50,151 bases of DNA, taken from contig JAHQVU010000036.1 of the NCBI GenBank assembly GCA_019634145.1, positions 1 through 50,151 of the forward strand, in the 5' to 3' direction. Under the pieces are notes generated by a model. It searched no databases. It worked only from the letters and a program-made list of their open reading frames with translations, and was not told where the DNA came from. The first letter of the stretch is position 1. Every line of letters begins with the position of its first letter. Source of the stretch: Micavibrio sp. (GTDB lineage Bacteria > Pseudomonadota > Alphaproteobacteria > Micavibrionales > Micavibrionaceae). Positions 7,790-19,882 of this stretch are shown piece after piece. The translations under genes were made by a program, and so were the position numbers.

Positions 7790-7882
7790 TAGCGCCCTCG
7801 ACTGGCTGGGATGATTTTACGCTTATAAAGATACTGCCCAGTATGTCGCTTGGCAAGAAAAGTTTGAAATTTGTCCTTTGGG

Positions 7883-7914
7883 GCTGTATTACCTGTGTGG
7901 TATACAGCTTTTTT
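7883..7914 (+). promoter_or_regulatory. Terminator-like hairpin in the ettA leader (possible attenuator or TetR operator)
   Basis: Arms at 7883-7893 and 7899-7908 (GCTGTATTACC and GGTATACAGC) pair over ten bases with one unpaired T, enclosing a TGTGT loop, and are followed directly by six T at 7909-7914. This is the form of an intrinsic terminator, yet it lies 25 bases before the ettA start codon and no gene on this strand ends upstream. Attenuation of ettA is the simplest reading. The same palindrome could be a TetR-family operator, since a tetR gene starts 94 bases to the left on the other strand. Confidence 0.55.
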
Positions 7915-7939
7915 ACTCGCAATTTTAAGAGGTTTACCC

Positions 7940-9568
7940 GTGTCTACGCAGTATGTTTATGTGATGAATGGCTTATCAAAGGCTTATGATAACAAGAAGA
8001 TATTAGAAAATATTACGCTGTCCTTCCTGCCCGGCGCGAAAATCGGGGTTTTGGGGCCGAATGGTGCGGGTAAATCGACCTTGCTCAAAATCATGGCGGG
8101 TGTGGATAAGGATTATACCGGCGAAGCATGGGCCGCGCAGGGTGTACGCATTGGCTATCTGGAGCAAGAACCGCAGTTGGACAAGAGTAAAACGGTCGCG
8201 CAGAACGTCATGGATGGTCTCAGCGATATTAAAGACATGATAGACCGCTATAACGAGATCGGCGTTTTGATGGCTGAGCCGGACGCAGATTTTGACGCGC
8301 TGATGGCCGAAATGGGTGAGCTGCAGGAGAAGATCGATGCGGCCGATGGTTGGGAGCTTGATCGTACAATTAAAATGGCGATGCAGGCTTTGCGCTGTCC
8401 GCCGGGTGATAGCGGTGTTGAAAAGCTATCGGGCGGTGAAAAGCGACGCGTTGCGCTTTGCCGCTTACTTTTGGAGCGTCCAGACATCCTGCTTCTCGAT
8501 GAACCGACCAACCACCTTGATGCGGAGAGCGTGAGCTGGCTGCAGAAATTCCTGAAAGATTATAAGGGCACGGTTGTGATGATTACACACGATCGCTACT
8601 TCCTTGATAACGTCACGGGCTGGATTCTGGAGGTTGACCGCGGTCAGGGCATTCCATATGAGGGTAATTATTCGGCCTATCTTGAAGCCAAGCGTAAGCG
8701 TATGGAGCAGGAATCGCGCGAAGAAGATGTGCGTCAGCGTACGCTGGCACGTGAACAGGAGTGGATGGGCAAGAGCCCGACAGCGCGCCGCGCGAAATCG
8801 AAGGCGCGTATCAATGCTTATCAAGACCTTTTGGCTGAAAGTCAAAAAGTTGACAAGCGTGGCTGTCAGATTGTTATTCCGACGCCGCCGCGCCTTGGAA
8901 ATCAGGTGATCGAAGCCAAGGGGATTTCAAAGAAATTCGGTGATAAAGAGCTTATCAATAACCTCTCCTTCAGCCTTCCGCCCGGTGGGATTGTCGGGGT
9001 GATTGGAGCAAACGGTGCGGGTAAAACCACATTGTTCAAGATGATCACTGGACAGGAAAAACCTGATAGTGGTGATTTCACTGTCGGTGATACCGTTAAG
9101 CTAGGCTATGTCGACCAAAGCCGCGATAGTTTGAGTAGCAAAAACACCGTATGGGAAGAGATTTCCGGTGGTACCGATATTATTCAGCTCGGTAAGGTCG
9201 AGATGCAATCACGGGCTTACGTGTCCTCCTTTAACTTCCGTAAAGGCGACCAGCAGCAGCTAGTTAAAGATTTGTCAGGCGGTCAGCGTAACCGCGTGCA
9301 CCTTGCAAAAATGCTTAAAGAAGAAGCCAATGTGATCTTACTCGATGAGCCGACCAACGATTTGGACACCGAGACTTTGGCAGCGTTGGAAGAGGCAATT
9401 GAGACGTTTCCGGGGTGCGCGGTGATTATTTCGCACGATCGCTGGTTCCTTGACCGTTTGGCTACGCATATCCTTGCTTTCGAGGGCAACGGTCATGTCG
9501 AGTGGTTTGAGGGTAATTATGAGGATTATGAGGCTGATCTGGAGCGTAGGAACTCCAAAGCTGCTTAA
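7940..9568 (+). CDS. ettA: Energy-dependent translational throttle protein EttA (ABC-F ATPase)
   Basis: 542 residues from the GTG at 7940. I chose it because AAGAGG lies 7 bases upstream and because the protein then begins [17 protein letters not shown], matching EttA N termini; the open frame extends 23 codons further up but with unrelated sequence. Two ABC cassettes are visible: Walker [10 protein letters not shown], signature [13 protein letters not shown] and Walker [19 protein letters not shown] in the first; [22 protein letters not shown] and [18 protein letters not shown] in the second. The arm and linker segment specific to EttA lies between them ([11 protein letters not shown] on). 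There is no membrane domain. EttA binds the ribosomal E site and slows the first elongation step when the ADP/ATP ratio is high. A terminator-like hairpin precedes the gene. Confidence 0.96.
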
Positions 9569-9737: not shown

Positions 9738-12620
9738 GTGAGTGGTATAACTGTAAAAAAAGTGATTAAGTACTCTGTCATGCCGGAAATTTTTCCGCGT
9801 ATGCGCAGATTATTCACGTCCGGTTTCAGCTATGTCATATTTCTGATGGCGCAGATTTATGCGATGGTGCGCCTCATTCCTGCCAATCACCCTTATCTTC
9901 TAGAAGAAAATATTGGCCGCTTCGGCTTTAAAGATGTTGTTGCCACGGCGGCAAATAATCTGGTTATCGAAAAAAAAAATATTGATCAGATTATTGTGTT
10001 CGGTTTGATGCTTTCCGCAATTGTGCTGCTTTTGCTTCAAATTGTGATTTTGATCGGATCACTCATATTCGGCGGTGTGGCAATGGCTGGTGGTGGAGGC
10101 GGCATCGTCGTCTCCGAATTATTTGTAACGGCAAATCCGGAACATGATATCGCTTATATGTTGATGGATCGGGTGTTCGGTATTCCCGATATGTTCGGAT
10201 CATGTATATCAGTGGGCGTTGCTTGTGTTGATTCAGCGGGCAATAATTATGATACCGGGGCATTTCCGTGGTCTTTCCATGCGGCTTTACAGCAATTTTT
10301 CCGCTTTTATTCGACAGCGATGCTGATCATCGGGACTATAATTGTATGCTACTATATCGTTGTTATCGTTGCAGAAACTGCGACAACAGGAACACCATTT
10401 GGTAAGAGATTTCAAAATGTCTGGGTGCCTGTGCGTTTGATTGTTGCTGTTGGTATGCTCATTCCTTTGCAATACGGCTATAATGCCGGACAATATATTG
10501 CATTTCATGCTGCTAAATACGGCTCATCCATGGCGACTTATTCTTGGCGGAGCTTTAACGATGCAGTAGGAAGTAGTCTTGGCGATGGCGCAAATCCGTT
10601 AGGAGAGGCAGAAAACCTATTGGGTAAGCCACAAACTCCGGATGTATCTGGAATAGTCGAAGCTCTTTCAATTGCACATACTTGTGCGTATTCCAATTGG
10701 TTTAATGATTATAGTGCGATAGGCATCGCCAACAAAAATGCTGTGGGCGCGAATGTTCTTGGTAACAGAGCTGCATATTTGCAGCGGAGCAAAATTAAAC
10801 CCTATCTTACAAAAACGCCTGAAGCATGGATGGGTGGTGGAAATGAGCCGGGTGTGATGCTTTTAGATGCAGGCACAACTTACAACCAGGCAAAGAATTT
10901 CTTTTATGGCGGGGATATCGTTATTACTTTTGGGCGAGTTGTGGACGAGAAAGAGGGCACGGCTGTAAATGATCTATATGCAAGTGATATTATCCCTGAA
11001 TGCGGAAAAGTCGCTGTTTTTATTACTGATCCAGCGGATTCCGGTGGTGGAAACATTTATTCTGGCAGTGCAGATATTCAGGATTTTTATTATAATACAA
11101 TTACTAATGGCTGGTTTGGGGATGAAAACATTGACTACATAAATTTCGCGCAGCATATGGTTCAAGAAAACAGCACTGCTGGTGACGTTTGTGCGTTACC
11201 AGCGGGTGGCGGTTTGAGGGATTGTGCTGATGGCGCCGGGACAACTATTCAAGTGCAATGGCGACAGGAGCGCATTACCGATTTGACGGTCGAGCTGGAA
11301 ACAGCAATTTCCGATATCTGGGACGTGTATCGTACCGAGACAGAGCCTTTTGCGATCACCGATGAGGTTCTTAATCGAGGGTGGGGCGGCGCCGGTATTT
11401 GGTTTAACAGTGTTGCAAGTATCAATGGTAAATGGATGTCATCTGTTGCAAATTTGCCTGTTATTATCTCAATGCCACAGGTTTTGGAAGAGATTAGAAA
11501 TGCCAGATCTTCGAGATCGAAGCAGGTGAACGGTTATCAGGCATATAACCCGGAAACAATGCCCGGGGATGCTGATGACTTTGCTGCAACTCTGAACAGT
11601 ATTATTTCGGATTATACAACGGCGCCGACCATTTTGTACAAAACACTCGTTTATTGGCGCGCGGGTAAAAAGAATTTTAATGATAATGGCCGCGATTCAA
11701 ATATGGGGCCTATTTTAACGGCTATTCACCTTATTTTTGGTACCGGCGGTTTATTCTCTATGCGTAGTGATGATAATTTGACAGTTCATCCATTGGCGCA
11801 ATTGGCATCATTAGGACGTTCATTAGTGGATGCCTCTATCCGGAATATTGCCATCTCATCCGGTTCGGCGGCATTAGGCGGATTAATGTCAGCCTTCCCA
11901 GGTGCTATTTCAGAGCGGGCTCAAGCGGTTGGGAGTATGGCGGCGTCCATTTCTTATATTGCGCTGACAGCCGGTTTGATACTTTATTATGTTCTGCCGT
12001 TTATGCCGTTTTTATATTTCTTTTTTGCAGTAGCATCATGGATTAAAACAATTTTCGAGGCGATGGTCGGTGTGCCGTTATGGGCATTGGCTCATTTGCG
12101 TATTGATGGTGACGGGTTGCCGGGAGACTCTGCACAGAATGGTTATTTCCTTATTCTCGAAATTTTCTTAAGGCCGATCCTTACGGTCGCGGGTTTGCTC
12201 GCTGCTATGGTTATATTTACGGCGCAGGTGCGTATTCTGAGCCTGGTATGGGGATTGGTTGTTCAAAACAGCGGCGGCTTTGATATGGGCGGCATGGCCA
12301 CGGGCGCTGCTTCTGTTGATGTCGGATTCTTAAGAAATATGATTGATCAGTTCTTCTTTACGATCAGCTACACAATTGTTGTCTATATGATGGCTACGGC
12401 TTCCTTTAAGCTGATTGATACTATTCCGGATAACATTCTACGCTGGGCCGGATCGAATGCGTCGTCCTTTGGCGATATTAACCATGACCCGACAGGCGAG
12501 CTTACGCGTTATGCAGCACTTGGCGGTATGACAGTTATTCGAGAGGCTTCTGAAGGTGTTACTAAATTTAGTGGCGGTATTGCTGGGTCGGCAGGTAGAT
12601 TCTTGGGTGGAGGGAGATAG
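9738..12620 (+). CDS. DotA/TraY-family membrane protein, copy 1
   Basis: 960 residues from a GTG start; the following codons align with the N termini of the two downstream paralogues (KKVIKYSVMPEIFPRMRRLF), which supports it. Features in order: N-terminal hydrophobic helices, ENIGRFGFKDVVATAANNL near 55, NIDQIIVF near 80, a helix pair near 90-120, FVTANPEHDIAYML near 130, a Cys pair in FGSCISVGVAC near 155, then TGTPFGKRFQNVWVPVRLIV near 215, a large soluble domain (about 260-660) with RGWGGAGIWFN near 550, GLFSMR and VHPLAQLASLGRSLVDASIR near 675-700, and a C-terminal membrane block with LPFMPFLYFFFAVASWIKTI and MVGVPLWALAHLRIDGDGLP. DotA in type IVB secretion and TraY in IncI conjugation are polytopic inner-membrane proteins of the export apparatus. 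Which transport this copy serves is unknown. Confidence 0.88.
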   Translation: MSGITVKKVIKYSVMPEIFPRMRRLFTSGFSYVIFLMAQIYAMVRLIPANHPYLLEENIGRFGFKDVVATAANNLVIEKKNIDQIIVFGLMLSAIVLLLLQIVILIGSLIFGGVAMAGGGGGIVVSELFVTANPEHDIAYMLMDRVFGIPDMFGSCISVGVACVDSAGNNYDTGAFPWSFHAALQQFFRFYSTAMLIIGTIIVCYYIVVIVAETATTGTPFGKRFQNVWVPVRLIVAVGMLIPLQYGYNAGQYIAFHAAKYGSSMATYSWRSFNDAVGSSLGDGANPLGEAENLLGKPQTPDVSGIVEALSIAHTCAYSNWFNDYSAIGIANKNAVGANVLGNRAAYLQRSKIKPYLTKTPEAWMGGGNEPGVMLLDAGTTYNQAKNFFYGGDIVITFGRVVDEKEGTAVNDLYASDIIPECGKVAVFITDPADSGGGNIYSGSADIQDFYYNTITNGWFGDENIDYINFAQHMVQENSTAGDVCALPAGGGLRDCADGAGTTIQVQWRQERITDLTVELETAISDIWDVYRTETEPFAITDEVLNRGWGGAGIWFNSVASINGKWMSSVANLPVIISMPQVLEEIRNARSSRSKQVNGYQAYNPETMPGDADDFAATLNSIISDYTTAPTILYKTLVYWRAGKKNFNDNGRDSNMGPILTAIHLIFGTGGLFSMRSDDNLTVHPLAQLASLGRSLVDASIRNIAISSGSAALGGLMSAFPGAISERAQAVGSMAASISYIALTAGLILYYVLPFMPFLYFFFAVASWIKTIFEAMVGVPLWALAHLRIDGDGLPGDSAQNGYFLILEIFLRPILTVAGLLAAMVIFTAQVRILSLVWGLVVQNSGGFDMGGMATGAASVDVGFLRNMIDQFFFTISYTIVVYMMATASFKLIDTIPDNILRWAGSNASSFGDINHDPTGELTRYAALGGMTVIREASEGVTKFSGGIAGSAGRFLGGGR

Positions 12621-12622
12621 AC

Positions 12623-15394
12623 ATGCAGGCAAAGCGCAAAGATATTTTCTTCTATATTTTGTTTCCGCAAATATTACCACGTTTGCGCGATCTGATTATG
12701 AGCGGCTTTCAGTTTATTCCCTACATGATCGCCTATGTTTATGCGGCGGTAAAGTTGCTGCCGGTGGGGCACCCTTTTCTGAATGGTAAGAATATAGGAC
12801 GTTACAGCTTGCGCGATGTTGTATTCGAGGCCGGACGTCAATTAAATTGGAATATTCGGAATATCGATCAGATTCTGATCTTTTTAATGGTGATTGTCGG
12901 GCTGATTTTGATGATCATGCAAATAGGCCTTCTTGCTGTTTCTTTATTCATCGGCCCGGTTTTCGCGGCTGCCGGGGGCTTTCCAACCAGCTTTGCCGAC
13001 TTCTTTGTAACTGCTAATCCGGATCAGGATTTGGCATATATAATGTTGGATTTGGTTTTTGGCGTGCCTGATATGTTTAATTCTTGTGTGTTTGCGGGAG
13101 GGTGTGTCGATTCCGATAATAACGCGGTGGGCGCATTGATTGCGCAGCAAAATGGGATCACTGCCGTGCATGCGGGGCTACATGCCTTATTTCGTGTTTA
13201 CTCGCTGGGCCTTTTGGTCATCGCGGCGATGATTTTTTCTTATATGGTCGCGACTGTTATTGCAGAAACGATGCAAAGCGGTATGCCATTTGGTCGCCGT
13301 TATAACCATGTGTGGGCACCGATAAGAATGGTGGTTGCGTTCGGTTTGCTTATTCCAATTTCTTTGGGTTTGAATACCTCGCAGTATTTGGTTTTGTATG
13401 CAGCAAAATTCGGATCAAGCTTTGCTACAAATGGCTGGGTTTATTTTTATAACAATCTCGAAAACGGGATGATCTCGTCTATTGGATCGGGTCAGCAGCA
13501 AGATATGGTCGCGGTGCCGAATGCACCGCAAATGGGCAGTTTACTTCAATTCTTGTACACAGCGCGTGCGTGTGCTTTTGCCGAGGATATGCGTGAAGGT
13601 CATGATGAAAAAAATCGCCCCGAAGTTAAACCCTGGATTGTCTTGCATCCTGAAAATGCGGTGAAAGCGCTTGAAATCTCTACGGTGCCTATTGACTATA
13701 ACCAAATCATGAATGCAATTGAGGGTGATGCGGGTGTTACAGTTCGTTTTGGCCGATGGGATAATGATAATAACAGGGCAGGCTCAACAGCAAATGCCGG
13801 ACTTGTGGAACCGGTTTGTGGTGAATTGTATATTCCTTTAACCGACCCGCGTCCTGCTGCTGATCAGGCAGATGCTATGCGCGCGGTGCAGGAGTTTTAT
13901 ATCTCTATTATCCCGGCGATCTGGATGGATGCCGATCCGGATGTCAACGCTGAGGCATTTATTCTGTCTTATGCGTATGTCCATAATTTTGTGAATGATC
14001 AAGCGAGGAACTATACTTATGGTGAACCTACAAATGCACAAAGTAGGTCCCAAAAAAATATTTGGAATGGTGCTATAGCGGCGCTTATTAGTAATCCGGG
14101 CTCGTCGGCTTATGCCTCAGCACCTTATGTGCAAACTGGCCTTCCTGCCGGTGGTGTGGTGCAGGCAATGTATGAAAGTGACGATTTTCAGATTGCTTTG
14201 GCTTATCTCGAAAAAGGCTGGGCCGGCGCTGCCATATGGTACAACAAGATTGCAGAGCTTAACGGGATGATTGGCGATACTGTCGCTAATAAACCGAATA
14301 TAAAATCATACCCCAGAATTATGGCTGAAGTGAGCCAAATAAAAGCCAAAGGGAAAGGAAGTGTATCTGTAGGAAACCAGTTTGACCCTACTGGCATTGA
14401 CCTTGGGGAGCCATTTGACAATTTGGTGGCTCAAGCGCTTTACGCAACTTATAACTTCTGGTCTCAGAGCGGCTCACTGCAATCTGCGCATAATCAAAAT
14501 TCAGGCAACGCTTTTAAAGATCTTATCAATATGATGTTCGGAACTGATGGGCTCTTTAGTATGCGCGACCCGCAAAATGCCAATGTACACCCGCTGGCGT
14601 TACTTTCTGTTTTAGGTCGTGGGTTAATATCAGCGTCTATCAATAATTTGGCTTCGGCAGGGTTTGTGGCAGGGGTCGGTGAATTTGCAAATATGAGCGG
14701 TGTGAATATATCGGGAGCTGCAGGGAGTATAGCCAGTGCTTTGGTGAAATTCTCTATGGTCGGTTTGACAGCAGGGTTTGTGCTGTATTACGTCATTCCG
14801 TTTCTTCCCTTTATCTATTTTATGTTTGCGTTTAGTGGCTGGGTTAAAGGGATATTCGAGGCTATGGTCGGCGCGCCATTATGGGCATTAGCGCATATTC
14901 GTATCGATGGGCACGGTTTACCCGGACAAGCGGCTGTGACAGGATATCTTCTGATCTTCGAGATATTCTTGCGACCAATTTTGATGGTCTTTGGTCTGTT
15001 AGCCAGTATATCGATATTCTCGGCTTTGGTATTCGTTCTAAATTTGGTTTTTGACCTGGTTGTCAGCAATGTGGGGGGCTATGACGTTGAAGCCGGTATT
15101 GCCAATGCGGGCGCCGCCGGTGGGATGGAGGGCTTCCGTGATGTTGTTGATCAATTGTTCTTCACTGTCATTTATACAGTTATTGTTTATATGCTTGGTA
15201 TGTCTTCCTTTAAATTGATTGATCTTATTCCGAACAACATTCTGCGATGGTTGGGGCATGCGGTTTCGACATTTAATGACAGCCAGGAAAATGCTGCGGA
15301 AGCTATGGTGGGTAAAGTATCACAAGGTTCACAGCAGACTTTCTCGGCGATCGGTGGCGGTCTAGGAAAGCTTGTAAACCCCAGAGGCGGGTAG
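12623..15394 (+). CDS. DotA/TraY-family membrane protein, copy 2
   Basis: 923 residues, starting 2 bases after copy 1 ends, with GGAGG about 9 bases upstream of the ATG, so it is co-translated with copy 1. It keeps every block of the family: KNIGRYSLRDVVFEAGRQL, NIDQILIF, FVTANPDQDLAYIMLD, FNSCVFAGGC, SGMPFGRRYNHVWAPIRMVV, ISLGLNTSQYLVLYAAKFGS, VCGELYIPLTDP, KGWAGAAIWYNKIAELNG, GLFSMR, VHPLALLSVLGRGLISASIN, LPFIYFMFAFSGWVKGIFEA and APLWALAHIRIDGHGLP. The large middle domain (about 290-620) differs most from the other copies, while the C-terminal membrane block is best conserved. An N-terminal hydrophobic segment is followed by a loop with the paired Cys, probably periplasmic. A heteromeric membrane complex with copies 1 and 3 is my inference. 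Confidence 0.88.
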   Translation: MQAKRKDIFFYILFPQILPRLRDLIMSGFQFIPYMIAYVYAAVKLLPVGHPFLNGKNIGRYSLRDVVFEAGRQLNWNIRNIDQILIFLMVIVGLILMIMQIGLLAVSLFIGPVFAAAGGFPTSFADFFVTANPDQDLAYIMLDLVFGVPDMFNSCVFAGGCVDSDNNAVGALIAQQNGITAVHAGLHALFRVYSLGLLVIAAMIFSYMVATVIAETMQSGMPFGRRYNHVWAPIRMVVAFGLLIPISLGLNTSQYLVLYAAKFGSSFATNGWVYFYNNLENGMISSIGSGQQQDMVAVPNAPQMGSLLQFLYTARACAFAEDMREGHDEKNRPEVKPWIVLHPENAVKALEISTVPIDYNQIMNAIEGDAGVTVRFGRWDNDNNRAGSTANAGLVEPVCGELYIPLTDPRPAADQADAMRAVQEFYISIIPAIWMDADPDVNAEAFILSYAYVHNFVNDQARNYTYGEPTNAQSRSQKNIWNGAIAALISNPGSSAYASAPYVQTGLPAGGVVQAMYESDDFQIALAYLEKGWAGAAIWYNKIAELNGMIGDTVANKPNIKSYPRIMAEVSQIKAKGKGSVSVGNQFDPTGIDLGEPFDNLVAQALYATYNFWSQSGSLQSAHNQNSGNAFKDLINMMFGTDGLFSMRDPQNANVHPLALLSVLGRGLISASINNLASAGFVAGVGEFANMSGVNISGAAGSIASALVKFSMVGLTAGFVLYYVIPFLPFIYFMFAFSGWVKGIFEAMVGAPLWALAHIRIDGHGLPGQAAVTGYLLIFEIFLRPILMVFGLLASISIFSALVFVLNLVFDLVVSNVGGYDVEAGIANAGAAGGMEGFRDVVDQLFFTVIYTVIVYMLGMSSFKLIDLIPNNILRWLGHAVSTFNDSQENAAEAMVGKVSQGSQQTFSAIGGGLGKLVNPRGG

Positions 15395-15429
15395 ATAGAT
15401 GGCTAGGGAAGGCAGGTCAGTATAGTTAA

Positions 15430-18279
15430 ATGACAAAATGGCAAATTGCAAAATACACGATACTTCCGGGGATATTGCCCCGGTTATTCGCGCTCTTTAG
15501 CGAGGGTTTTGCACATGCTGCTTTTTTAATCGCGGTCATTTATGAGATGGTCGGGCTGTTACCCAAAGATCATGCTTACTTACGTCGAGAAAATTTTGGT
15601 AAATACGGCATAATTAAGGTTATAGCTGCGGCGGGCAATAACCTTAAATTTACACGCAGCCATATAGATCAGGTCTGTATTTACGGTGTTTCATTGCTGT
15701 GTGTTACGATGATTCTCGGCCAGATAGGTTTATTCTTTGCATCACTTTTCTTAGGGCAGCCGCTATATGCAGCTGGTGGTGATTTTAATTATATTCTGAG
15801 CGTTAACCCGGATTTTGCCGGTGTTGGTGGGCCTAGGAATGACGATCTTGCAGCGATATTACTTGATCAAATATTCGGTTTAACAGATAGCCAAGGGAAT
15901 GGGTTTTTCGGATCTTGCATAGGCAACGGCAGTCCGTGTTATTATATGGATGGGCAGGAAATGCCTGCAAGGGCGGCGGCATACCCATGGAGTTTTCATG
16001 TATCACTTCATAAAATGTTTCAATTTTACTCGATGGGAATTTTTGCCGTTGGGGTATTGATCATCATTTATTACGTTGTTGCGCTTGTATCCGAAACCGC
16101 GGTCGCAGGCTCACCTTTTGGTCAGCGTGCGAATTCAACATGGGCACCGGTAAGGCTGATTTTGTTCTTTGGTCTTCTCCTTCCTATTGGAACCGGTGGT
16201 ACTTGGAGCGGTAACAGTGCGGGTACACATGCCAATGGTTTGAATAGTGCGCAATTGATATTGATGTATGTTGTTAAAGCTGGATCGAATTTGGCGACAA
16301 ATGGCTGGATATATTATAACCAGATGGTCGCTGCGAATAATGAAGAAACGGTTACGCGTTTCACAGCCCAATCCGGAAACATTATAGCTGTTCCTAATTT
16401 TGACCGAAGCAAAGTCGAAAGCCTCTTTCAATTTATGGCGGTTATGCATACGTGCCGTGCGGCGTATGAATCTGCGCAAGAAGAGTATTATGGCAGTGAA
16501 AATTTTGAGATTAATCCTTATCTCGTCCGACCGGATACATCAAATCTTCCAGCTGGGGTGCAAGAGCCGGGGATGAACAATAATTTTCCAAATACGCGCG
16601 GTTTTGCTGGGGCGAACGGCTCGAACAGTACCTACATAGAGGCATTACGCTTTTCTGCACATGGCAATGTCACAATTGTATTTGGAGAATTGGCGCCCTT
16701 GATTGATGGTAACATCGATGAGAATTTCAAAGATTATAAAGGGGCTGTGAAACCATTGTGTGGAGAGCTAACCATTCCTTCTATGGATGTTTTCGAGCCA
16801 GGGGCGCAGTTAATGCAAGATCGTTATTATAACATCATAAAAGCGATGTGGAATGATCCGATGATTGCAAACAATGCTAAGTGCGTTGTTCAAGAGCACT
16901 CAAATATAATTGTTAGTGGCGCGGGTAATTGCGAAAATCAGAAATTTTTAGCTGAATTTGTTAGATCCAAGGTTGTACAATATTTAGATGATTTTGTTGA
17001 AGCGCTTGATGATGGTATTGAAGAGCAAAGAGAAAACGGAGCCTTTGAACATGATGGCGAGGGGCTTGAGACCCTACTGAGACGCGGATGGGCGGGGGCA
17101 GCCCTGTGGTATAATAAAATTGCCAAGATGAATGGTAGTATGACCCACGCTGCAGATAATATCGCGCAAGTTTCCAAGGTGCCTTATTTGCTTCATCTTG
17201 TCGCAGAGGCCAATTCTTCACAAAATTCTAATGCCAGTGGTGATTTTTTGTATTCCCGTATTATGAATGATCCTGAAAAGGTCAATCTGGTTCTTGACTT
17301 TGACAATATTGCCGATGGCGAGATATTTAAATCTATTTTAGCGACTAAGAATATTGTGAATGCGTCTTTGGTTGTTAATACGGGTGCGCATGCAGGTGAA
17401 ACTGGGAATGCCTTCATTGATACTGTGAATATGCTTCTGGGCACTCAAGGTATTTTCGAGATGCGTAAAAACAGAGATGTCCATCCTTTGGCACAATTGT
17501 CTTCCTTAGGGCGTGGTATGATGGATGCTTTAACGAAAAACTTATCGGTTTCTCTTGGTGCTAAGCTCACTAATATTGGGCGTGCAGCCGCGGGTATGAA
17601 GCCAGATCCGGGTGTGGCGGCCGTTGAAGGCTTATTTACGTCTTTGGTCACTATTGCAGCGGTTATCGCATTCATACTTTACTATGTCTTGCCTTTTATG
17701 CCCTTTATGTATTTCTTCTTTGCCGTCAGCGGGTGGGTAAAAGGGATATTCGAGGCGATGGTTGCGATGCCTTTATGGGCGCTGGCGCATTTGCGCATTG
17801 ATGGTGAAGGTCTTATGGGGCCTGGGGCTATCAATGGCTATGGGCTATTATTAGAGATTTTCTTACGCCCTATACTGATCTTAACCGGTATGATGGCTAG
17901 TCTGGCAACGTTTTCTTCGCTCGTATGGGTCTTAAATCTCGTATTTGGGATTGTTGTTTCAAATGTTAGTGGGCATGATTTTTCTCTTGATTACGGTAAT
18001 ATCGGGAATTCCGAGTTGAATATTGCTGCCGGGTCTAGTGTTGATGTGTTTTTCTTTACGGCGATGTACACAGTTATTTGTTATATGCTTGCGACAGCCA
18101 GCTTTAAGCTTATTGATATGATTCCGAATAAGATTATGCGCTGGATGGGTATATCAACCGCGACCTTCCAGGAAAGCATGAAAGATCCAGTCGGATCACT
18201 GACATCGCAGGCGCAAAAAGGCGGTATCCTATTGACCAGACAGCTTAAAGGTCAGGCTGCTGGTGCGATGGAGCTATAG
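15430..18279 (+). CDS. DotA/TraY-family membrane protein, copy 3
   Basis: 949 residues, 35 bases after copy 2. Family blocks: MTKWQIAKYTILPGILPRLF, ENFGKYGIIKVIAAAGNNL, HIDQVCIY, AILLDQIFGL, FGSCIGNGSPC (spaced Cys pair), AGSPFGQRANSTWAPVRLIL, NGLNSAQLILMYVVKAGSNL, CGELTIPSMDVFEPG, RRGWAGAALWYNKIAKMNGS, GIFEMR, VHPLAQLSSLGRGMMDALTK, and the C-terminal LPFMPFMYFFFAVSGWVKGI then MPLWALAHLRIDGEGLMGPG. It has more residues than copy 2 around the insert GGTWSGNSAGTHANGLN near 260. Only a weak ribosome site is seen. The gene ends 106 bases before the convergent mlaC. No DotB-, IcmO-, IcmE- or IcmK-like gene is in the window, so the rest of any secretion machine must lie elsewhere. Confidence 0.88.
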   Translation: MTKWQIAKYTILPGILPRLFALFSEGFAHAAFLIAVIYEMVGLLPKDHAYLRRENFGKYGIIKVIAAAGNNLKFTRSHIDQVCIYGVSLLCVTMILGQIGLFFASLFLGQPLYAAGGDFNYILSVNPDFAGVGGPRNDDLAAILLDQIFGLTDSQGNGFFGSCIGNGSPCYYMDGQEMPARAAAYPWSFHVSLHKMFQFYSMGIFAVGVLIIIYYVVALVSETAVAGSPFGQRANSTWAPVRLILFFGLLLPIGTGGTWSGNSAGTHANGLNSAQLILMYVVKAGSNLATNGWIYYNQMVAANNEETVTRFTAQSGNIIAVPNFDRSKVESLFQFMAVMHTCRAAYESAQEEYYGSENFEINPYLVRPDTSNLPAGVQEPGMNNNFPNTRGFAGANGSNSTYIEALRFSAHGNVTIVFGELAPLIDGNIDENFKDYKGAVKPLCGELTIPSMDVFEPGAQLMQDRYYNIIKAMWNDPMIANNAKCVVQEHSNIIVSGAGNCENQKFLAEFVRSKVVQYLDDFVEALDDGIEEQRENGAFEHDGEGLETLLRRGWAGAALWYNKIAKMNGSMTHAADNIAQVSKVPYLLHLVAEANSSQNSNASGDFLYSRIMNDPEKVNLVLDFDNIADGEIFKSILATKNIVNASLVVNTGAHAGETGNAFIDTVNMLLGTQGIFEMRKNRDVHPLAQLSSLGRGMMDALTKNLSVSLGAKLTNIGRAAAGMKPDPGVAAVEGLFTSLVTIAAVIAFILYYVLPFMPFMYFFFAVSGWVKGIFEAMVAMPLWALAHLRIDGEGLMGPGAINGYGLLLEIFLRPILILTGMMASLATFSSLVWVLNLVFGIVVSNVSGHDFSLDYGNIGNSELNIAAGSSVDVFFFTAMYTVICYMLATASFKLIDMIPNKIMRWMGISTATFQESMKDPVGSLTSQAQKGGILLTRQLKGQAAGAMEL

Positions 18280-18384: not shown

Positions 18385-19041
18385 TTAGTTTTTGCGCAGT
18401 TCTTCTAACAGAACTTCGACATTACCGCCACCGCGTTGGATAACTGAAGCAAAATCGGCGCGCTGGGTCATTGTCATGCTTACGCCTTCCACAATGATAT
18501 CAATAACCTTATTTCTGCCATTTTTCTCGCGCAGGCGCCAATCGACTTTTACATCCGGGCCGCTAGGTTGTTTTATAACCGAGTTGACCAAAATATCTCT
18601 TTTCCCTTCAGGGCGTGAGCCAGTGACCAATAGATCTTGGCCTTTATATTCATCGAAACGACGTGCATAGACGTTTAGAACCATTTGCTCAAATAGATGC
18701 AGGTATTCTTTTTGTTGTGCGGTATTGGCAGATTTCCAGTAACGCCCAAGCGCAAATCGCCCGATTGTGCCCATATCGAAGTTTCTCTGGAGGAGAGCTT
18801 TAAATTTATCTTTGCGCTGGGTTTGGGATAATGATTGATCAGCTAGGAAATCAATGCCTTCTTGCGCCATGTTTTGGATCGTTTTCTCAGCAGCAGAAGC
18901 GTCAATAGCAATCATTGTTATGCTTGAAGATGCTGCCGTGGAAGAAATAGCGCTTCCTACGGTGGCTTGAGCGTTTGAAGCAGAAAAAGTCAATATTGCT
19001 GCTGCACAGAGCAGGGAGTATTTAATTGTCATGGTTCTCAT
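18385..19041 (-). CDS. mlaC: MlaC/Ttg2D-family phospholipid-binding periplasmic protein
   Basis: 218 residues with a signal peptide (about 1-27, IKYSLLCAAAILTFSASNAQ). The mature part has the MlaC family pattern: NMAQEGIDFLAD then KFKALLQRNFDMGTIGRFAL with GRYWKSANTAQQKEYLHLF near 85-125, VLNVYARRFDEYKGQ, and VDWRLREKNGRNKVIDIIV with EGVSMTMTQRADFASVIQRG near the end. MlaC carries phospholipid across the periplasm between the outer-membrane lipoprotein MlaA and the inner-membrane MlaFEDB transporter. mlaA lies 43 bases upstream in the same direction, giving an mlaA-mlaC pair; the ABC transporter genes are not in the window. Start: ATG at 19041, with a second ATG three codons later; neither has a strong ribosome site. 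Confidence 0.92.
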   Translation of the reverse strand: MRTMTIKYSLLCAAAILTFSASNAQATVGSAISSTAASSSITMIAIDASAAEKTIQNMAQEGIDFLADQSLSQTQRKDKFKALLQRNFDMGTIGRFALGRYWKSANTAQQKEYLHLFEQMVLNVYARRFDEYKGQDLLVTGSRPEGKRDILVNSVIKQPSGPDVKVDWRLREKNGRNKVIDIIVEGVSMTMTQRADFASVIQRGGGNVEVLLEELRKN

Positions 19042-19084: not shown

Positions 19085-19882
19085 TTAGTAGTCATCGTAA
19101 TCAGGAATATCAACGTAAGCTGCATCATCCGGGTTTTGATCATTTACCAATGCTTCACGGCGCTGATAATATGCACTGCGTGTAGCAGCATAATAATCGA
19201 TAGAGGACGCTTCTAGTTCCTCAAGAACATCAATTAATGATGCGCGTAGGTTTAGATAGTCCAGAGCGACTTTGCCGTAATAGATGCCTTCTTTATCGAC
19301 ATTATGCGCATACCAACGTAGCGGATCTGCTATGCTGTCTACGAAAAAACCGGCATAGTCTCTTGTTGATGATGGGCCGATAACCGGCACTACGAGATAA
19401 GGGCCGTGATCAACGCCCCAGCTTGCCAGCGTCTGACCGAAATCTTCAGCTTCATACATAATACCTTCGTGGCCAGCCAAATCAAATATACCGCCGAAGC
19501 CGAGCAATGTGTTAATTACAGCCCGCTTTAATACATTTCCTGCACCGTCCAGATCTCCTTGCAGAACTTCGTTCATAAATGTTGTCGGGGAGCGCAGATT
19601 TTTCAGTGCGTTATCAAGCCCTGTTTGCGCCGGATTAGGCACAACAGTTTTATAGGTTTTCACAACAGGGTTGATAAAGGCTGCATCAACGGCTTTGTTA
19701 AATGAAAATACTTTTCTGTTATAGTTTTCGAATGGGTCGTTAATTTCTGCCCCATCAATGCCGCGCGGCTCTGTTGTCATGCATCCTGTAAGTGCAACGG
19801 CGGACAATAATCCTAAAATGGTTGCGCGTAAGAAATTCTTTTCTTTTTTCATAGTGGCTGTGGCCCTTAAGTTACTAAACAT
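19085..19882 (-). CDS. mlaA: MlaA/VacJ-family outer-membrane lipoprotein
   Basis: 265 residues. A lipobox LTGC is at 31-34, so the protein should be lipidated at Cys34. The VacJ fold follows: NDPFENYNRKVFSFNKAVD at about 47-65, LKNLRSPTTFMNEVLQGD near 91, NTLLGFGGIFDLAGHEGI near 120, EDFGQTLASWGVDHGPYLVV near 140 and GPSSTRDYAGFF near 163. The end is acidic and Tyr-rich. MlaA sits in the outer membrane with porins and removes mislocalised phospholipids from the outer leaflet, handing them to MlaC, encoded next. Start is uncertain: the ATG at 19882 has AGGAA 6 bases upstream, but an ATG ten codons later gives a more usual signal peptide (MKKEKNFLRATILGLL). Confidence 0.93.
   Translation of the reverse strand: MFSNLRATATMKKEKNFLRATILGLLSAVALTGCMTTEPRGIDGAEINDPFENYNRKVFSFNKAVDAAFINPVVKTYKTVVPNPAQTGLDNALKNLRSPTTFMNEVLQGDLDGAGNVLKRAVINTLLGFGGIFDLAGHEGIMYEAEDFGQTLASWGVDHGPYLVVPVIGPSSTRDYAGFFVDSIADPLRWYAHNVDKEGIYYGKVALDYLNLRASLIDVLEELEASSIDYYAATRSAYYQRREALVNDQNPDDAAYVDIPDYDDY

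What the first reader, a model, noticed from the sequence alone, without database searches (positions are those of the whole stretch)
9738..18279. Three tandem DotA/TraY paralogues with no other type IV secretion genes around
Three proteins of 960, 923 and 949 residues share the same ordered blocks: NIDQ near 80, an FxSC...C pair, the PFGxR...W.P(V/I)R motif, GWxGAxxWxN, VHPLA.L..LGR and the PLWALAH(L/I)RIDG block. DotA and TraY are normally single-copy parts of a complete secretion or conjugation locus. Here an apparent 8.5 kb operon holds only these three, flanked by ettA and mla genes. This suggests a separate hetero-oligomeric inner-membrane device, or divided roles in a type IVB system encoded elsewhere. 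The middle soluble domains vary most, as expected for partner or substrate recognition. This is the best candidate here for an under-described system.
Basis: partly seen in the sequence, partly recalled or inferred. Interest (0 to 1): 0.72.

Follow-up and report, generated by a model that had tools for sequence, protein, structure and literature searches.

The report
Triplicated DotA genes of a secretion system
In one family of Micavibrio-like bacteria the gene for the central channel protein (DotA) of a Legionella-type secretion machine is kept in three tandem, equally conserved copies while several other machine parts are single, which suggests that the channel is built from different subunits.

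Summary
Confirmed: three adjacent ORFs (9738-12620, 12623-15394, 15430-18279) are DotA/TraY proteins (227-249 bits, cut-off 100); models of two of them match the Legionella DotA fold. They are not a free-standing device: the genome encodes a type IVB system on other contigs (DotB, C, D, G, H, I, L, IcmT and more). The triplet is fixed, not random: of 36 family genomes 28 have three and one has four intact tandem copies, six are split over contigs, one lacks the locus. Of 21 genomes of other families 12 have one; expansions to 2 and 4 arose separately. All copies are under purifying selection and evolve no faster than single-copy DotA. A second tandem array, related to plasmid TraW (counterpart of VirB5/IcmX), lies in the main locus, in 1-5 copies, but does not track DotA number. 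Best explanation: paralogous subunits of one T4BSS stalk, probably a hetero-oligomer; co-assembly is inferred. Precedent: virB6a-e of Rickettsia. New variant of a known kind.

The parts
9738..12620 (+). dotA paralogue 1 ('a'), 960 aa, GTG start
   Evidence: TIGR04346 248.8 bits; AlphaFold model matches Legionella DotA 9ngy, Foldseek E 2.5e-12, VIA Z 19.9 (rmsd 7.0, 599 aligned), and VirB6 of R388, Z 9.7 (rmsd 6.3, 249 aligned)
12623..15394 (+). dotA paralogue 2 ('b'), 923 aa
   Evidence: TIGR04346 237.5 bits; 40% identical to copy 1; not modelled
15430..18279 (+). dotA paralogue 3 ('c'), 949 aa
   Evidence: TIGR04346 226.8 bits; model matches 9ngy DotA, Foldseek E 2.7e-14
7871..9568 (+). ettA, conserved upstream neighbour (context); start codon of the listed ORF is probably too early
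   Evidence: TIGR03719 906.7 bits from 7967 on; just upstream in 47 of 60 testable named loci
18385..19041 (-). mlaC/hpnM-like gene, conserved downstream neighbour (context)
   Evidence: below the curated cut-offs; downstream in 42 of 57 testable named loci
19085..19882 (-). mlaA (vacJ)-like gene, conserved downstream neighbour (context)
   Evidence: below the curated cut-off; downstream in 42 of 57 testable named loci; same order around the single dotA of G046 (L101)

Best explanation
The three genes encode paralogous inner-membrane/periplasmic channel subunits (the DotA = VirB6 position) of the type IVB secretion system of this Micavibrio-like genome. They arose by tandem duplication in place, between ettA and mlaC, at the base of one family. 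They probably co-assemble as a hetero-oligomer at the base of the stalk, where Legionella uses a DotA pentamer. The upper stalk part is also multi-copy: TraW/IcmX-like (VirB5-type) proteins lie in a tandem array in the main locus. Shown: family membership, fold of two copies, presence of the rest of the system, fixed copy number, purifying selection on all copies. Inferred: that the three proteins sit in the same particle, the stoichiometry, and that the machine moves effectors into prey or host cells.
For: DotA/TraY profile and fold. T4BSS genes elsewhere in the own genome: DotI, DotH, DotG (TrbI domain), DotF-like, TraQ-like, DotN-like and the IcmB candidate on C11; DotB, DotC, DotD and IcmT on C66; DotL on C39. 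DotH: one match in each of the 50 of 57 genomes where it is found. IcmB: one match in 53 of 57 (a fragment in G020), split over two contigs in 2, absent in 2. DotB: one match above 300 bits in 50 of 57. Intact tandem triplet in 28 and quadruplet in 1 of 36 family genomes. Named genomes: 49 loci with three, 6 with four, none with fewer among the 55 of 69 not near a locus edge (sample ranked by similarity to this family). Family copies form one group against other families, SH-aLRT 99 and 100. dN/dS 0.085, 0.049, 0.079 for one pair of genomes, dS near saturation. Divergence relative to IcmB alike for the copies (2.84, 2.99, 2.99) and not higher than for single-copy DotA (3.59). Legionella DotA-IcmX is a central pentamer (review passages). 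TraW-like array: profile match E 4e-11 to plasmid TraW; TraW, IcmX and VirB5 in one row of a review table.
Against: No direct evidence of co-assembly: no complex was modelled, and no position separates the copies consistently (none passed the 75% test). b and c are not clean orthologue groups across the family: one clade for all b is rejected (p 4e-49), so b and c were re-formed or converted in some lineages. TraW-like copy number does not track DotA copy number: G047 1 DotA and 4 TraW-like, G055 1 and 4, G049 4 and 1, and no TraW-like match was found in 10 of 57 genomes, among them the family member G032 and the near-complete G042 and G048, which have IcmB. Three or four subunit types do not divide a pentamer evenly. 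Relatives run the system with one DotA, so three are not a general need. Not only stalk genes are multiplied: small pilin-like/TraQ-like genes are too.
Confidence: 0.6

Rival explanations
1. Alternative stalks: each DotA forms its own homo-oligomer, and the single core machine is fitted with one of three channels, perhaps with different TraW/IcmX-like tips for different prey, substrates or phases.
For: The middle parts of the copies differ most. The TraW-like array varies from 1 to 5 copies and in protein length. In the window's clade the copies are old and keep their order.
Against: The copies form one tight tandem set with 2 and 35 bp gaps, overlapping by a few bases in several relatives, which favours joint expression. 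Equal rates of all copies. No link between the number of DotA and of TraW-like genes.
Confidence: 0.25
2. Dosage or near-redundant copies kept by gene conversion, without division of labour.
For: b and c are mixed or resemble each other within some lineages, as after conversion or repeated duplication.
Against: Copies 2 and 3 are only 40 and 37% identical to copy 1 and remain separate in the window's own clade; copy number is fixed at three or four rather than variable.
Confidence: 0.1
3. A separate device unrelated to the T4BSS, made of DotA proteins alone.
For: The locus is on another contig than the T4BSS genes found in this genome. G002 and G034 (99-100% complete) hold the triplet without IcmB, strong DotB, DotH or DotC.
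Against: Those two genomes also lack flgK, which adjoins T4BSS genes in relatives, so a whole contig is probably missing. 53 of the 55 genomes with a DotA match have an IcmB match, one of them (G020) only a fragment at a contig end. Relatives with one dotA have it at the same place (G046) or two genes away from dotH on the same strand (G042).
Confidence: 0.04

Closest known systems
Legionella Dot/Icm DotA-IcmX protochannel (PDB 9ngy; described in passages of PMC12981334 and PMC12857230)
   Same: DotA family and fold; the same kinds of core T4BSS genes in the genome
   Different: Three to four DotA paralogues where the solved structure holds one DotA sequence; usually several TraW/IcmX-like proteins; scores far below the Legionella DotA equivalog cut-off (158-193 of 500 bits)
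IncI-type plasmid TraY and TraW
   Same: TraY is annotated as the same family; TraW is homologous to the tandem array proteins
   Different: The four plasmid transfer stretches read for this each carry one TraY and one TraW. No PF03432 relaxase in 8 of 9 related genomes tested; the window's genome has one on another contig
Rickettsiales rvh system with virB6a-e (PMC2653234, PMC10732058; passages read)
   Same: Arrayed, strongly diverged paralogues of the VirB6-position channel subunit, conserved across a lineage, in an alphaproteobacterial T4SS
   Different: VirB type with VirB6/TrbL domains and no VirB5; here T4BSS type with DotA and several VirB5-position (TraW-like) proteins. That the expansions are separate events is inference

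Membership tests
DotA/TraY family (TIGR04346) | Profile score above the curated cut-off of 100 bits | tested here: met
   248.8, 237.5, 226.8 bits
DotA/TraY family (TIGR04346) | Fold of the solved DotA | tested here: met
   Models of copies 1 and 3: 9ngy DotA is the only Foldseek match with E under 0.001; VIA Z 19.9, rmsd 7.0, 599 aligned for copy 1. Copy 2 was not modelled
Legionella-type DotA equivalog (NF033886) | Score above 500 bits | tested here: not met
   158.1, 193.4, 164.5 bits
Type IVB / I-type T4SS | Core set DotB, DotC, DotD, DotG, DotH, DotI, IcmB/DotO, IcmT in the same genome | tested here: met
   DotB is below its curated equivalog cut-off (397.7 of 463.3 bits); IcmB has only weak family matches (best E 1.9e-4) and is named by size, place and conservation
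Type IVB / I-type T4SS | Coupling protein DotL/IcmO | tested here: met
   L281 ORF, 850 aa, E 2.8e-151 to solved IcmO/DotL
Type IVB / I-type T4SS | IcmX/TraW (VirB5 position) | tested here: met
   A7 against plasmid TraW A6: hhalign probability 97.2, E 4e-11, 293 columns. Against: the narrower alignment A5 gave no significant match, 1 of 14 members matches the TraW model and below its cut-off (27.3 of 100 bits), and no match to solved IcmX was found
Conjugative I-type system | Relaxase with the system | tested here: inconclusive
   PF03432 found in 1 of 9 genomes only (the window's own, contig C79); other relaxase families not tested
Pentameric DotA stalk | Five-fold assembly, homo- or heteromeric | not testable with these tools
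   No complex prediction available

The most novel reading that the evidence does not exclude
The family has an asymmetric, hetero-oligomeric T4BSS stalk: different DotA paralogues in fixed places of one ring, topped by several different TraW/IcmX-like proteins. It would be a second, independent invention of the arrangement suggested by the arrayed virB6 genes of Rickettsia, giving a channel whose subunits can specialise in gating, substrate entry and prey or host contact.
Probability: 0.4. Interest if true: 0.75.

Novelty: new variant of a known kind. Interest (0 to 1): 0.56.

Why it matters
The solved stalks named in the reviews are pentamers of one VirB6-type protein, and the passages read on Rickettsia leave the reason for its five VirB6 genes open. 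A second lineage that multiplied the equivalent subunit of the other T4SS class, with relatives that keep one copy at the same place, makes the question testable by comparison. It also bears on a group related to Micavibrio predators: the 2011 genome paper of M. aeruginosavorus ARL-13 reports no evidence for a type III or IV system (PMC3189940, passage), whereas 55 of 57 related genomes searched here have an IcmB match, and a 2022 study counted I-type systems in seven marine Micavibrionales (PMC9418006, passage).

Tried and rejected
Fusion of two copies: an 'open frame' of 1876 aa in G016 suggested a DotA-DotA fusion; the DNA shows a TAA stop between them, so it was dropped. The similar 1812-aa value for G192 also resolves into three separate ORFs.

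Free-standing DotA device: G002, G034 and G020 lack T4BSS markers; not followed further because flgK is missing too in G002 and G034 and G020 keeps an IcmB fragment at a contig end. G029, the only family genome without DotA, also lacks mlaA, so a stretch seems missing there.

Lockstep of DotA and TraW-like copy numbers: not found.

Residues that mark each copy: none found at 75% within groups. Segment trees: fewest label changes in residues 131-330 (7; other segments 12-16), no firm conclusion. The clade test for all c, and for b plus c, was not finished and not repeated.

Promoter/terminator scan: promoter-like sites below and terminator-like sites near the shuffled mean. Single-sequence PDB searches for three proteins of T4BSS loci gave nothing significant for two and an L,D-transpeptidase for the third. 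The identity of G027 (one contig, 2,458,610 bases) with a named M. aeruginosavorus strain is my recall, not tested.

Full report
What is there. Three intact ORFs on the + strand, 960, 923 and 949 aa, follow ettA and precede mlaC- and mlaA-like genes on the other strand. The gaps between them are 2 and 35 bp. All three exceed the curated cut-off of the DotA/TraY family (248.8, 237.5, 226.8 against 100 bits) and stay below that of the Legionella DotA equivalog (158-193 against 500 bits); Pfam has no match. A profile of 14 family members finds one distinct protein of the PDB, DotA of 9ngy and 9nh0 (E 1.8e-42; 10 chains in two entries). AlphaFold models of copies 1 and 3 (mean pLDDT 74.9 and 74.5) have 9ngy DotA as their only Foldseek match with E under 0.001. 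The structural aligner puts VirB6 of the R388 stalk second for copy 1 (Z 9.7, rmsd 6.3, 249 aligned to a chain of 261). Copy 2 was not modelled.

Where the rest of the machine is. In the same genome contig C11 carries DotI, DotH, a TrbI-domain DotG, a weak DotF match, a TraQ-like protein, a DotN/IcmJ-like protein just under its cut-off and the 1002-aa protein read here as IcmB/DotO; contig C66 carries DotB, DotC, DotD and IcmT; contig C39 carries DotL. IcmB is named from size, place and conservation, since its family matches are weak. No T4SS gene was seen among 20 other ORFs of the window; ORFs beyond 31.8 kb were not scanned. So the triplet is best read as an unlinked part of a type IVB system.

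Who has it. Search of 57 genomes, the window's own included (36 of one family, 21 of six other families of the order), and reading of loci: 28 of 36 family genomes have exactly three complete tandem copies, one (G031) has four, six are split over contigs (G017, G019, G021, G025, G026, G033) and one (G029) has none, but lacks mlaA as well. A further family member met in the class search also has three (G192). Of the 21 genomes of other families, 12 show one copy, three show two (G050, G053, G056), one shows four (G049), one shows one plus a piece at a contig end (G044), three are fragmentary (G038, G045, G054) and one has none (G051). In the named collection 168 places matched and the best 80 were kept, giving 69 loci, 17 titled Micavibrio sp. 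and the rest Alphaproteobacteria or Proteobacteria bacterium; that the order is Micavibrionales is my inference from these titles. Of the 69, 55 have their DotA set more than 600 bases from a locus edge: 49 have three copies, six have four, none fewer; the other 14 are near an edge. This sample favours the window's own family, since hits were ranked by similarity to it. Of 385 genomes drawn from the class 17 have DotA, 13 of them outside the order; tandem pairs occur in G275 and G363.

How it arose. In a tree of 120 DotA proteins the family's copies form one group (SH-aLRT 99; 100 in a smaller tree), and expansions in other families are separate. In the window's own clade a, b and c are three orthologue groups in fixed order. 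Across the whole family a as one clade is not rejected (p 0.27), while b as one clade is (p 4e-49): b and c were re-duplicated or converted in several lineages. G046 has a single dotA between ettA and mlaC-mlaA, the same place. G042 has a single dotA on the same strand as, and two genes from, dotH. ettA is next upstream in 47 of 60 and mlaC downstream in 42 of 57 testable named loci. This points to tandem duplication in place.

Are all copies used. For one close pair of genomes (G003, G006) dN/dS is 0.085, 0.049 and 0.079; dS is 1.6-1.8 and near saturation, so these are rough. Over 17 family genomes (136 pairs per copy) DotA divergence divided by IcmB divergence has medians 2.84, 2.99 and 2.99; over five single-copy genomes (10 pairs) it is 3.59. 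The pairs are not independent, but no copy looks relaxed.

A second array. One unknown 483-aa protein encoded beside dotI proved to belong to a tandem family. Copies read: three in G005 and G012, two plus a third split between two fetched stretches in G006, two in G027, four in G009 and G023, five in G010, G022, G026, G029 and G035; outside the family four in G037, G047, G050 and G055, at least three in G053, one in G046 and G049, two in G036. A search of the 57 genomes found the family in 47; the 10 without a match include G002 and G034, but also G032, G042 and G048, which have IcmB. The window's genome has one copy near the end of C11 and one, cut, at the start of C66; they group with the first and third copies of related genomes, and by comparison with G006 the second may fall in the assembly gap. 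In families f3 and f5 the four copies are position-by-position orthologues. One of 14 members scanned matches NCBIfam TraW (E 1.9e-6, 27.3 of 100 bits). A family profile scores two plasmid TraW proteins at 30.7 and 13.6 bits; four other ORFs at 104-432 bits are evident members; the next best of 1089 ORFs is at 5.3 and the best of 500 shuffles at 4.4. hhalign of 27 family members with five plasmid TraW gives probability 97.2 and E 4e-11; a narrower alignment did not, and no PDB protein matched. A review lists TraW, IcmX and VirB5 as counterparts, and TraY, DotA and VirB6 likewise, both as stalk pentamers (PMC12624023, table passage). So both stalk components are multi-copy in much of the group, while DotH, IcmB and strong DotB are single where found (50, 53 plus 2 split, and 50 of 57) and so are DotC (10 of 13, absent in 3) and the DotL-type protein (6 of 6). 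The numbers of the two arrays do not go together, and small pilin-like genes are multiplied too.

Reading. Legionella DotA-IcmX is described as a central pentameric protochannel (PMC12981334 and PMC12857230, passages; the primary paper is not held). The simplest account is that the three DotA proteins share one ring in one machine. Alternative rings for alternative uses remain possible. The closest precedent is Rickettsia, with five strongly diverged virB6 genes in most genomes (PMC2653234, passages); another paper gives three to five rvhB6 copies for the Rickettsiales system (PMC10732058, passages). The lack of a PF03432 relaxase in 8 of 9 genomes and the kinship with Micavibrio predators suggest effector transfer, which is inference.

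Print status. Searches of the paper library for Micavibrio with DotA, for the phrase 'DotA TraY', and for Micavibrio with 'type IVB secretion' found no paper; Micavibrionales with 'secretion system' found three (one read in passages); M. aeruginosavorus with 'type IV secretion' found four (one read in passages). No description of tandem DotA was met in what I saw; most subscription papers are not held, so this is weak evidence of novelty.

Noticed in passing
L095:15518-16969 and L096:2-1447 (own genome C11, C66); L108, L109, L242-L257 in relatives: Tandem arrays of 1-5 TraW/IcmX-like proteins in the T4BSS locus; four position-orthologous copies across two other families. Ten members scanned had no Pfam match better than E 0.02.
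   Followed up: yes
G049, L084 and L248: A distant relative has four tandem DotA genes (one of 1396 aa) with a single 986-aa TraW-like protein and no strong DotB match.
   Followed up: partly
L102:1560-3097 (G046): Three 129-aa pilin-like/TraQ-like genes next to a longer TraQ-like gene; two of the three gave identical scores.
   Followed up: no
L095:7361-8053 (own genome C11): The DotN/IcmJ-like protein also weakly matches the IscB model (E 7e-5); a gene in the transfer stretch of Cupriavidus pMTS3 is annotated HNH endonuclease.
   Followed up: no
L096:1558-5273 (own genome C66), L098 (G027): flgK- and flgL-like genes lie between the TraW-like array and dotB; flgK adjoins T4BSS genes in each of the 7 genomes where it was found. 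The gene names rest on size and recall, not on a profile search.
   Followed up: partly
L096:12006-12839 (own genome C66): A DsbG-like thiol isomerase gene sits near dotB-dotC-dotD; DotA and the TraW-like proteins carry conserved cysteines.
   Followed up: no
L286:1444-2754 (own genome C79): A relaxase-like gene on another contig of the window's genome; no PF03432 match in 8 relatives tested.
   Followed up: no
G032:C13 (IcmB), G007:C38 (DotH), G038:C191 (DotH): Some relatives show an in-frame TAG inside otherwise full-length matches to IcmB or DotH; pseudogene, error or recoding not examined.
   Followed up: no
PMC3189940 compared with G027 (L097, L098): The M. aeruginosavorus ARL-13 genome paper reports no evidence for a type IV secretion system, yet a single-contig genome of the window's family, close in size to ARL-13, carries T4BSS genes; the identity of that genome is not established here.
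   Followed up: partly
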